Source: Blattabacterium sp. (Blattella germanica) str. Bge (GTDB taxonomy: Bacteria; Bacteroidota; Bacteroidia; Flavobacteriales; Blattabacteriaceae). From it: DNA of 64,000 nt. Below, piece after piece: positions 33,488-36,898 of this stretch. Under the pieces are notes generated by a model that made no database searches, was not told where the DNA came from, and saw only the letters and a list, made by a program, of their open reading frames with translations. Every line of letters begins with the position of its first letter. Position 1 is the first letter of the stretch. The position numbers and the translations under genes are program-made. The DNA lies in assembly GCF_000022605.2 (NCBI RefSeq), contig NC_013454.1, positions 1 to 64,000 of the forward strand. The letters run 5' to 3'.

Positions 33488-34657
33488 ATGTCGTTATTTG
33501 ATATTAAATCTATATTTCATAGTTATGAATCTTTTAAAGATAAAAGCATTAATCCATCCAAGATCTTTAGATATTGTAATTTATTGGAAATCATTGAAAA
33601 ATATAAAAACACATGTTCTATTACTCCGATAGGACTGTCTGTAGAAAAAAGAAAAATTTTCAAAATAGAATGGGGAATAGGAAAAATAAAAGTATTTATT
33701 TGGTCTCAAATGCATGGAAATGAAACTACAGGAACAAAATCTATGTTTGATATTCTTTATTTTTTTTCAAAACAGAAAGATCACGACTTAGTTCAATTTT
33801 TTATCAAAAATTTAACTATTTTATATATTCCAATGTTGAATCCTGATGGATCTGAGATATTTCAAAGAAGAAATGCTATAAATATTGATTTAAATCGAGA
33901 TGCTATTCGTTTACAATCTCCAGAAATACAAGTCCTTTTTCAGGAAATTCACAAACATAAACCTCATATTTTATTTAATTTACATGATCAAAGAAGTATT
34001 TATAATGTTGGAAATAAATATTTTAATCCTGCGATTTTATCTTTTTTATCACCTTCTGTTTCTGTAGAAAAAAATATTGATTTGATTCAAAGAAAAAAAT
34101 CTATGGGAATTATACATTTTATTACAAAAGAAATTCAAAAAATATTACCTCATGTTGGATCAGTAGGAAGATTCTCTGATGATTTTTATCCTACAGCAAC
34201 TGGAGATAACTTGCAAAAGTTAGGTTATCCTTGTATCCTTTTAGAAGCAGGAAATTATCCTAAAGATAGTCAAAAAGAGAAAATTAGAAAATATAATACT
34301 TTATCTATTCTTGCAGGATTTTATTTTATTTCTTCTCAAAAAGAAAATCTTGAAAAAGATTATAAATTTTATTTTTCCATTCCAGAAAACAAAAATGTTT
34401 TATTAGATAAAATATATAGAAAGGTTCAAATACAAAAAGGAGACGATAAATTTATAATAGATATAGGACTAATGAGTTTTGAAGAATTTGATGTTGATCG
34501 AAAAAATCTCTCCTTTATTTCTAAAATTGTTGATATAGGAGATTTATCAAATTTTTTTGCTTATGAAGAATTTATTGTTCCAGGTTTCCTTTTTCATGGA
34601 AAAAATGGAAAAAGATATCCAACAATTGGAGATGTGGAATCTTTCCAGATTTTTTAA
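33488..34657 (+). CDS. M14-family zinc carboxypeptidase
   Basis: Metallocarboxypeptidase fold. The zinc and catalytic residues are visible in order: His76 and Glu79 in QMHGNETTG, the NPDGSEIFQRRNAINIDLNRD substrate-binding stretch, His166 in FNLHDQRS and the general-base Glu253 in LLEAGNYP. The 389-residue length matches flavobacterial M14 proteins of unknown substrate. There is no obvious signal peptide, so it may act in the cytoplasm, possibly on peptides or peptidoglycan fragments. It stands alone on this strand, preceded by about 190 bases in which no gene or convincing motif is seen. Confidence 0.88.
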   Translation: MSLFDIKSIFHSYESFKDKSINPSKIFRYCNLLEIIEKYKNTCSITPIGLSVEKRKIFKIEWGIGKIKVFIWSQMHGNETTGTKSMFDILYFFSKQKDHDLVQFFIKNLTILYIPMLNPDGSEIFQRRNAINIDLNRDAIRLQSPEIQVLFQEIHKHKPHILFNLHDQRSIYNVGNKYFNPAILSFLSPSVSVEKNIDLIQRKKSMGIIHFITKEIQKILPHVGSVGRFSDDFYPTATGDNLQKLGYPCILLEAGNYPKDSQKEKIRKYNTLSILAGFYFISSQKENLEKDYKFYFSIPENKNVLLDKIYRKVQIQKGDDKFIIDIGLMSFEEFDVDRKNLSFISKIVDIGDLSNFFAYEEFIVPGFLFHGKNGKRYPTIGDVESFQIF

Positions 34658-34659
34658 TT

Positions 34660-34809
34660 TTATTTTTTAAAATTAGAAACTGATAATTTTTTTCTTCCTT
34701 TTTTTCTTCTTCTAGATATAATTATGCGACCTGCTTTCGTGTTCATTCGTTTCATAAATCCGTGAACATTAACTTTTTTTCTATTAGAAGGTTGATAAGT
34801 TCTTTTCAT
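34660..34809 (-). CDS. rpmH: 50S ribosomal protein L34
   Basis: Small basic ribosomal protein, 49 residues. The translation starts [20 protein letters not shown] and continues with [20 protein letters not shown], matching the L34 pattern (MKRTxQPS...R...HGFxxRMxTxxGRxxxxxRRxKGRxxL). The stop is TAA two bases after the convergent M14 gene ends. Unlike in most bacteria, rnpA is not next to it, and no dnaA or origin signature is nearby. Confidence 0.97.
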
Positions 34810-35029: not shown

Positions 35030-36304
35030 ATGCTTGAAAAGCAAAAAACTATTGCTGGAAAAATTTCTTTGCAAGGATTCGGTTTATATACTGAAAAAAA
35101 AGTGACTATTACTTTTAACCCAGCTCCAGAAGATACAGGATTTATTTTCATCAGAACAGATATACAAGGAAAACCTTGCATAAGGGTACATTTTTCTTTT
35201 TTGTTAAAAGATACAATAGATCAAGGTATCATTTTAGAAAAAAATGGATTGAAAATTTATACAATTGAACATCTTCTAGCTGCTCTTTACGGAATGGATT
35301 TAGATAATGTTATTCTAGAATTAGATAATATAGAAATTCCTATTATGGATGGTTCTTCTAAATTTTTTGTAGAAGCAATTGAAAAAGTTGGAATTATAGA
35401 ACAAAATGCAAGCAGAAAATATTATTCAATAACAGAAATCATCTCTTCTAAAAATAGAAAAACAGGAGCAGAAATTATTGCTTTACCTGATAAAAAATTT
35501 GAAATAATAACCATGATAGATTTTGAATCCAAATTTCTGAATACACAAAATGCAGTTTTAAAAAATATAGGTCAATTTAAACAAAAAATAGCTGGTTCAA
35601 AAACTTTTTGTATTCTTAGAGAAAGAAGAACTATAAGAGAAAATTCCTTTTTTCCTTTTCCTTATTATCAAGAATCTAATGAAATAGCTAAACATCTCAT
35701 TTTAGACATTATAGGGTTTTTAACTTTAACAGGAACTAAATTAAAAGGAAAATTAATTTTTTATAAGCCAAATAATTATATTATTATGCAATTTTTAAAA
35801 GAGTTGATTAAGAAAATTAAAAAACATGATATTCCTAAATTTGATTTAGCAAGAAAACCCATCTTGGATATAAAAAAAATCATGAAAATTTTGCCACACA
35901 AACCTCCATTTCTTATGGTAGATAAAATCATAGACTTAACGGAAAATAGTGTAACGGGAATCAAAAATGTGACTATGAATGAATCGTTTTTTATCGGTCA
36001 TTTTCCAAATGAACCAATAATGCCTGGAGTTTTGCAGGTAGAAGCTATAGCACAAGTAGGTGGAATTCTTGTACTAAATAAATTAAACAATCCTGAATTA
36101 TATTCTACTTATTTTTTAAAAATAGATAAAGTGAGATTTAAACATAAAATAGTACCTGGAGATATTATTATTTTTAAAGTGGATTTATTAGAGTCTATGA
36201 AAAGAGGAATAGTTCATATGCAAGGAAAAGGTTACGTTAATAATAAACTCGTAGTAGAAGCAGAAGTTATGGCTAAAATAGTTAAAAACCATGAAAAATC
36301 TTGA
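35030..36304 (+). CDS. lpxC-fabZ: LpxC-FabZ fusion: degenerate UDP-acyl-GlcNAc deacetylase plus 3-hydroxyacyl-ACP dehydratase
   Basis: Bacteroidota fuse the lipid A deacetylase LpxC to the fatty-acid dehydratase FabZ. Residues 1-275 are LpxC-like: TIEHLLAAL (Glu80, His81), IMDGSS and KTFCIL. The zinc ligands are kept (His81, His222, Asp226), but the expected catalytic Lys after His222 is Leu223, the conserved Asp of the IGD motif is Phe230, and the PGH histidine is Asn (KPNNY, 246-250). About 38 residues between KTFCIL and KHLILD are missing relative to relatives. Residues 278-424 are an apparently intact FabZ, with LPHKPPFLMVDK, GHFPNEPIMPG and active-site His324 and Glu338. Length is 424 against about 460 usually. 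The fusion is probably kept for FabZ. Confidence 0.93.
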   Translation: MLEKQKTIAGKISLQGFGLYTEKKVTITFNPAPEDTGFIFIRTDIQGKPCIRVHFSFLLKDTIDQGIILEKNGLKIYTIEHLLAALYGMDLDNVILELDNIEIPIMDGSSKFFVEAIEKVGIIEQNASRKYYSITEIISSKNRKTGAEIIALPDKKFEIITMIDFESKFLNTQNAVLKNIGQFKQKIAGSKTFCILRERRTIRENSFFPFPYYQESNEIAKHLILDIIGFLTLTGTKLKGKLIFYKPNNYIIMQFLKELIKKIKKHDIPKFDLARKPILDIKKIMKILPHKPPFLMVDKIIDLTENSVTGIKNVTMNESFFIGHFPNEPIMPGVLQVEAIAQVGGILVLNKLNNPELYSTYFLKIDKVRFKHKIVPGDIIIFKVDLLESMKRGIVHMQGKGYVNNKLVVEAEVMAKIVKNHEKS

Positions 36305-36334: not shown

Positions 36335-36898
36335 ATGAATATTAGAAAAGGATTACATATACAATGGAACAAAGAAGTGTATAAAATAATTGATTTTCTT
36401 CATGTAAAACCAGGAAAAGGATATGCTTTTGTAAGAACTAAATTAAAAAATCTGGTAACAGGTCATGTTTTAGAAAATAATTTTTCAGCAAAACATAAAC
36501 TTAAAGAAGTAAAAGTAGAATCTAATTTTTATAGGTATTTATACAAGGAAAAGGATTTTTTTTATTTTATGAATGAAATCAATTGTGATCAAATACAAAT
36601 AGAAAAAAAGCTTATAAAAAATATAGAATTTTTAAAAGAAGGAATGAAGATTACGATTTTTTTTCATGTTAAAAATGAAAAAGAAAAGATTTTTTTATTT
36701 TTAAAAATACCTTCCACTGTTATTTTAAAAGTGAAACACACAGAATTTGTAAAAAAGGGAGATACTATTAACAACACCAATAAAATTGCTGTTTTAGAAA
36801 CAGGAACTAGATTATTGGTCCCTTCTTTTATAGATATAGGAGAATTTGTTAAGATCAATACGGAACATAGATCTTATATAGAAAGAATTAGAAAGTGA
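36335..36898 (+). CDS. efp: Elongation factor P
   Basis: Relieves ribosome stalling at consecutive prolines. The 187 residues have the three-barrel EF-P layout: N-terminal KOW-like domain with the loop KPGKGYAF, whose second lysine (Lys28) corresponds to the modified E. coli Lys34, then the OB domains ending RLLVPSFIDIGEFVKI. Domain II is divergent and Lys/Phe-rich. Whether Lys28 is modified is unknown; no modification enzyme is nearby. In free-living flavobacteria lpxA lies between lpxC-fabZ and efp; here only 30 bases separate them. Confidence 0.95.
   Translation: MNIRKGLHIQWNKEVYKIIDFLHVKPGKGYAFVRTKLKNLVTGHVLENNFSAKHKLKEVKVESNFYRYLYKEKDFFYFMNEINCDQIQIEKKLIKNIEFLKEGMKITIFFHVKNEKEKIFLFLKIPSTVILKVKHTEFVKKGDTINNTNKIAVLETGTRLLVPSFIDIGEFVKINTEHRSYIERIRK

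What the first reader, a model, noticed from the sequence alone, without database searches (positions are those of the whole stretch)
35030..35860. LpxC half of the LpxC-FabZ fusion is decaying while FabZ is intact
The zinc ligands survive (His81, His222, Asp226), but residues that align with E. coli Lys239, Asp246 and His265 are Leu223, Phe230 and Asn248/249, and some 38 residues between KTFCIL and KHLILD are gone. FabZ motifs and its His324/Glu338 are normal. This fits loss of lipid A synthesis with the dead domain kept because it is fused in frame to an essential fatty-acid enzyme, a trapped pseudodomain.
Basis: partly seen in the sequence, partly recalled or inferred. Interest (0 to 1): 0.7.

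Follow-up and report, generated by a model that had tools for sequence, protein, structure and literature searches.

The report
Catalytically dead LpxC kept by fusion
In a cockroach endosymbiont that no longer makes endotoxin, the leftover endotoxin enzyme has apparently lost its chemistry but is still held in a folded shape because it is fused to an essential fat-making enzyme, and relatives that broke the fusion (at least eight separate times) lost it.

Summary
Window 35030-36304 of Blattabacterium strain Bge encodes one intact LpxC-FabZ fusion. Zinc ligands and Glu80 remain; E. coli Lys239, Asp246, His265 are Leu, Phe, Asn; about 41 residues of the acyl-chain insert are gone. The lipid A pathway is missing: LpxA, LpxD, LpxB, LpxK and WaaA were found in 0 of 49 Blattabacterium genomes. 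The nearest relative with a complete LpxC (G053) keeps an intact lpxD-lpxC/fabZ-lpxA cluster.

The 'decaying' reading fails. Across 37 fused genomes the LpxC core has dN/dS 0.10-0.14, like ordinary Blattabacterium genes; omega=1 is rejected by about 746 log-likelihood units. The fold is predicted confidently. Mainly active-site positions and the insert have gone.

The 'kept by fusion' reading is supported. Twelve genomes, at least 8 independent events, have free FabZ. In G016/G017 the released LpxC fell to 75% DNA identity with over 150 nt deleted; fused LpxC at the same divergence is 89%. FabZ did not evolve faster after release.

Best explanation: a pseudoenzyme domain whose chemistry is lost but whose fold is selected because it must fold ahead of an essential partner. 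A new zinc-dependent function is not excluded.

The parts
35030..36304 (+). lpxC-fabZ fusion gene, 424 aa
   Evidence: Open frame; Pfam LpxC + FabA-like; NCBIfam NF009667 577.8 bits, cut-off 465
35030..35614 (+). LpxC N-terminal core (residues 1-195), fold retained, omega about 0.10
35267..35272 (+). codons for Glu80-His81 (E. coli E78 catalytic base, H79 zinc ligand), kept in 37/37 fused genomes
35615..35680 (+). shrunken remnant of the LpxC acyl-chain insert (28 aa between F192 and H238 equivalents, 69-70 aa in free-living relatives), low model confidence
35681..35824 (+). LpxC C-terminal core (residues 218-265), zinc ligands kept, substrate residues lost
35693..35719 (+). helix with His222 and Asp226 (zinc ligands, kept), Leu223 (was K239) and Phe230 (was D246)
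35771..35776 (+). Asn248-Asn249, in place of Gly264-His265
35786..35788 (+). in-frame ATG (Met253) upstream of FabZ; Met in 16 of 37 fused genomes, and an equivalent ATG lies upstream of FabZ in released ORFs such as G002, G016, G017 and G024
   Evidence: use as a start is inferred
35861..36304 (+). FabZ domain, active-site His324 and Glu338 intact, omega 0.04-0.05
33488..34657 (+). M14-family peptidase gene upstream; lpxD, which precedes the fusion in G053, is absent here
36335..36898 (+). efp downstream; lpxA, which follows the fusion in G053, is absent here

Best explanation
The LpxC half is a pseudoenzyme domain. Shown here: all 49 Blattabacterium genomes lack the lipid A pathway; LpxC catalytic and substrate positions have degraded while the fold and zinc site stayed under purifying selection; and in lineages where FabZ stands alone the LpxC half has disintegrated while FabZ carries on unchanged. 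Inferred: the pathway was lost before the Blattabacterium crown; the domain has no useful chemistry; and selection keeps it because a misfolded domain at the N-terminus would harm the essential FabZ attached to it. Also inferred: the vacated active site was filled with large hydrophobic residues because that stabilises the fold, and the zinc is kept as a staple between the two LpxC subdomains. Escape needs a new start for FabZ, which would explain why the domain is kept in most lineages but was lost at least eight times.
For: Pathway: PF13720 (LpxA), PF04613, PF02606, PF04413 and PF02684 in 0/49 genomes, each with positive controls; PMC2768785 also reports complete loss of LPS synthesis in Bge. 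Polarity: G053, same family, keeps lpxD-lpxC/fabZ-lpxA with all catalytic residues. Chemistry: K239 0/37, RGT-Thr 0/37, D246 3/37, H265 8/37, T191 11/37. Changes are directional, e.g. K239 to I/F/Y/L in 34/37, D246 to F/Y in 30/37, Thr67 to I/L in 37/37. Fold: omega 0.10 (N core) and 0.14 (C core), lnL -8319.6 against -9065.8 at omega=1 for the N core; observed HMM score 216.6 bits against 6.7 in neutral simulation; pLDDT mostly 88-98 in the LpxC core; Foldseek matches to LpxC, TM (target) 0.72-0.81. Zinc: departures are only H238C (G041) and D242E (G021, G045), all able to bind metal. Fusion dependence: 8 independent losses on two trees; released LpxC in G016/G017 74-75% DNA identity and 155-161 nt deleted, fused relatives 89%, with FabZ about 90-91% in both. 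FabZ not accelerated after release, p=0.99, omega 0.039 against 0.039-0.046.
Against: Glu80, the catalytic-base equivalent, is kept in 37/37, which fold maintenance alone does not clearly predict. The most constrained stretch of the LpxC half (residues 76-105, omega 0.026) is as constrained as the FabZ active site. A domain with its own function that became dispensable in 8 lineages would give the same loss pattern. No direct evidence on activity, zinc content or folding exists.
Confidence: 0.6

Rival explanations
1. The LpxC half is a neutral, decaying remnant kept open only because FabZ lies downstream.
For: Catalytic residues lost, insert shrunken and length-variable, pathway absent.
Against: omega 0.10-0.14, omega=1 rejected by 746 lnL units for the N core; neutral simulation would erase LpxC similarity; released copies do decay, fused ones do not.
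Confidence: 0.04
2. The LpxC half has taken on a new zinc-dependent catalytic or binding function, unrelated to lipid A, that some lineages later gave up.
For: Glu80, His81, His222, Asp226 nearly invariant over 37 genomes; very low omega around Glu80-His81; constraint similar to functional genes.
Against: Substrate and catalytic positions vary among strains (K239 site I/F/Y/L/N; H265 site N/H/K/P/S); the acyl insert varies from 17 to 51 aa; 8 independent losses.
Confidence: 0.17
3. The LpxC half is a scaffold that stabilises or organises the FabZ oligomer and is selected for that.
For: Fold conserved, fused in frame, purifying selection.
Against: Free FabZ arose at least 8 times with no rate increase (ratio 0.63 against 0.59, p=0.99) and no change in omega.
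Confidence: 0.14
4. The LpxC half is still a working UDP-acyl-GlcNAc deacetylase, with the rest of the pathway supplied by unrecognised or host enzymes.
For: Zinc site and Glu80 intact; NCBIfam labels the protein a bifunctional deacetylase/dehydratase.
Against: No LpxA, LpxD, LpxB, LpxK or WaaA in 49 genomes; K239, D246, H265 and most of the acyl tunnel segment lost (residue roles from PMC10254716).
Confidence: 0.02

Closest known systems
LpxC/FabZ bifunctional fusion of Bacteroidota (NF009667; PF03331 + PF07977)
   Same: Same domain order, 43-51% identity to free-living copies, over the NF009667 cut-off
   Different: Lipid A pathway absent, substrate and catalytic residues lost, acyl insert about 41 aa shorter, TIGR00325 LpxC score 142 below its cut-off of 187
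Pseudoenzymes (catalytically inactive homologues that keep the fold); from general knowledge
   Same: Fold under selection, catalytic residues replaced
   Different: No regulatory or scaffolding partner role is indicated; retention seems tied to fusion with an essential enzyme
Gene erosion in insect endosymbionts (e.g. parallel gene loss in Blochmannia, PMC4389277, title and abstract only)
   Same: Parallel, lineage-specific losses in a clonal symbiont
   Different: Here one domain of a fused gene is lost and the other lives on as a free-standing gene

Membership tests
LpxC/FabZ bifunctional fusion (as sequence family) | LpxC domain followed in frame by FabZ domain, over curated cut-off | tested here: met
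   NF009667 577.8 bits, cut-off 465; Pfam both domains
Functional LpxC deacetylase | Zinc ligands H79, H238, D242 and base E78 | tested here: met
   His81, His222, Asp226, Glu80
Functional LpxC deacetylase | Substrate/catalytic residues K239, D246, H265 | tested here: not met
   Leu223, Phe230, Asn249 in Bge
Functional LpxC deacetylase | Acyl-chain insert between F192 and H238 | tested here: not met
   28 aa against 69-70 aa in free-living relatives
Functional LpxC deacetylase | Substrate made by LpxA and product used by LpxD, LpxB, LpxK, WaaA | tested here: not met
   0 of 49 genomes for each
Functional LpxC deacetylase | Enzyme activity | not testable with these tools
   needs an assay
FabZ dehydratase | FabZ family score over cut-off, with catalytic His and Glu | tested here: met
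   TIGR01750 157.5 bits, cut-off 155.15; His324, Glu338 invariant
Pseudoenzyme | Catalytic residues lost while fold is under purifying selection | tested here: met
Pseudoenzyme | No catalytic activity | not testable with these tools
   inferred from residues and pathway loss
Decaying pseudogene/pseudodomain | omega near 1 or accumulating disruptions | tested here: not met
   omega 0.10-0.14 while fused; disruptions only in released copies

The most novel reading that the evidence does not exclude
The LpxC half has become a new zinc enzyme or zinc-binding module unrelated to lipid A, with its pocket rebuilt by hydrophobic residues, and is kept for that role in 37 Blattabacterium genomes.
Probability: 0.17. 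Interest if true: 0.7.

Novelty: new variant of a known kind. Interest (0 to 1): 0.52.

Why it matters
It gives a replicated natural experiment on why dead domains persist. The same domain, in the same genus, can be compared while fused (fold kept, chemistry lost) and after release (lost), with at least eight independent releases. This helps to separate selection for foldability from selection for function, which is usually hard to do. It also shows that automatic annotation as a bifunctional deacetylase is probably misleading for this genus, and that fusion with an essential enzyme can shield an apparently useless domain from the deletion typical of endosymbiont genomes. I found no paper in the held library that describes it: the one paper holding both 'Blattabacterium' and 'lpxC' is about stink bug symbionts. 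Subscription papers on Blattabacterium gene loss were not available.

Tried and rejected
Neutral decay: rejected by codon models and simulation. FabZ scaffold: no rate change after release. A cryptic lipid A pathway: rejected by family searches with controls. A wider phenomenon in Flavobacteriales: of 396 genomes, LpxC without LpxA was seen in the 37 fused Blattabacterium and in one 84% complete MAG, G240, whose 320-aa frame looks unfused. UFBoot supports were not obtained because IQ-TREE hit its time limit; FastTree SH-like supports were used instead. Two 30-codon sliding windows and one 43-codon set returned omega 1.000 with zero likelihood difference; I treat these as optimiser failures and do not use them. 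Independent changes at each active-site position were not counted formally.

Full report
What it is. The window belongs to Blattabacterium strain Bge: the chromosome in which it lies is 636,850 bases, the length published for that strain in PMC2768785, and the same-genus genome G027 has the contig length of Blattabacterium cuenoti NZ_CP059203.1. The gene at 35030-36304 is one open frame of 424 aa with an LpxC domain and a FabZ domain, the fusion known from Bacteroidetes, Chlorobi and Verrucomicrobia (PMC3087551).

The observation. Aligned with 12 free-living fusions, Bge keeps Glu80, His81, His222 and Asp226, and has Leu223, Phe230 and Asn249 where E. coli has K239, D246 and H265. The zinc ligands are His79, His238 and Asp242; K239 and H265 line the phosphate pocket, and Met195, Ile198, Phe212 and Val217 the acyl tunnel (PMC10254716). 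The segment that holds the tunnel is 28 aa in Bge, 17-51 aa in the genus and 69-70 aa in free-living relatives. FabZ is normal.

The pathway is gone. LpxA C-terminal domain, LpxD, LpxK, WaaA and LpxB were each found in 0 of 49 Blattabacterium genomes, while the controls rang. PMC2768785 states the same for Bge, and PMC3287516 removed lipopolysaccharide from the Blattabacterium biomass equation. The nearest relative with a complete LpxC, G053 (same family, 1.3 Mb), has lpxD, lpxC/fabZ and lpxA side by side with every catalytic residue intact. In Bge both neighbours are gone: an M14 peptidase gene and rpmH lie upstream and efp downstream.

Chemistry was lost. Over the 37 fused genomes, K239, the RGT threonine and Gly264 are lost in all; D246 remains in 3, H265 in 8 and T191 in 11, so the losses did not happen all at once. 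Replacements are directional: His20 to Tyr (36/37), Thr67 to Ile/Leu (37/37), K239 to Ile/Phe/Tyr/Leu (34/37), D246 to Phe/Tyr (30/37), Ala244 to Phe/Ile (25/37). Lysine is 13% of residues in this protein half, so mutation bias alone does not explain its absence at position 223. The sequences are related, so these are not independent counts.

The fold is kept. GY codon models over the 37 genomes give omega 0.10 for the N core (to F193), 0.14 for the C core and 0.047 for FabZ; neighbouring genes give 0.06-0.13 in the same clades (0.04-0.06 in the most divergent clade). Omega=1 is rejected for all three parts (N core lnL -8319.6 against -9065.8). A simulation along the same tree, from an observed sequence and with no selection, leaves 6.7 bits of LpxC similarity on average; 216.6 bits are observed. 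AlphaFold2 gives pLDDT mostly 88-98 for the LpxC core and below 50 only at 197-201 and 205-214, the shrunken insert; Foldseek places it on solved LpxC structures (TM by target 0.72-0.81). Zinc ligands depart only to residues that can bind zinc: H238C in G041, D242E in G021 and G045.

The natural experiment. Twelve genomes have FabZ without an open LpxC half. Placed on a tree of 11 proteins rooted with G053, they make 8 independent losses on both the IQ-TREE and FastTree topologies, assuming loss is irreversible. In G016 and G017 the LpxC wreck is still readable: 74-75% DNA identity to G036 with 155-161 nt deleted, while fused genomes of the same clade are 86-91% (mean 89%) over that stretch, and FabZ is about 90-91% in both groups. 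The linker now inside the new FabZ frame is 97.5% identical. Selection on the LpxC half therefore acts while it is fused and ceases on release. FabZ terminal branches are not longer in released genomes (ratio to the concatenate 0.63 against 0.59, p=0.99) and its omega is unchanged, so FabZ shows no need of the LpxC half. In 16 fused genomes, Bge included, an in-frame ATG (Met253) already stands upstream of FabZ, and an equivalent ATG is upstream of FabZ in several released frames; that it is the start used is an inference.

Reading. The association is more than 200 million years old (PMC9603385). Taken together, the LpxC half has lost its pathway and most of its chemistry, keeps its fold, and is lost once uncoupled. 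The simplest account is selection for a correctly folded N-terminal domain on an essential enzyme, with zinc kept as a staple between the LpxC subdomains (His81 from one, His222 and Asp226 from the other; the subdomain assignment is from general knowledge of LpxC). That FabZ is essential here is likewise from general knowledge and from its retention in all 49 genomes. The constant Glu80 and the very low omega near it (0.026 at residues 76-105) leave room for a residual or new zinc function.

How general. In 396 Flavobacteriales genomes, LpxC without LpxA occurs in the 37 fused Blattabacterium and in one incomplete MAG. Of the 19 other genomes in the family, only G053 has an LpxC.

Noticed in passing
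36335-36898 and the same place in relatives: efp next to the fusion is frameshifted, fragmentary or undetected in many Blattabacterium genomes in the flanks fetched (e.g. fragments in G002, G004, G005, G029; no hit in G003, G010, G026, G027), suggesting repeated loss of elongation factor P.
   Followed up: no
34660-34809, minus strand: A 49-aa frame that reads as ribosomal protein L34 (rpmH), lying between the M14 peptidase gene and the fusion.
   Followed up: no
L119 (G012), fused gene: The fused frame of G012 has a single-residue gap inside the FabZ domain (QVY-LESMKRG), not seen in the other fused genomes; it could be a real deletion or a sequencing error.
   Followed up: no
L113 (G041), LpxC half: The most eroded fused LpxC: H238 is Cys and the DGSS motif reads EDYS; lowest LpxC score of the fused genomes (129 bits). 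Possibly the next lineage to lose the domain.
   Followed up: no
35030-36304: The NCBIfam model NF009667 names this protein a bifunctional deacetylase/dehydratase although deacetylase residues and the pathway are gone.
   Followed up: no
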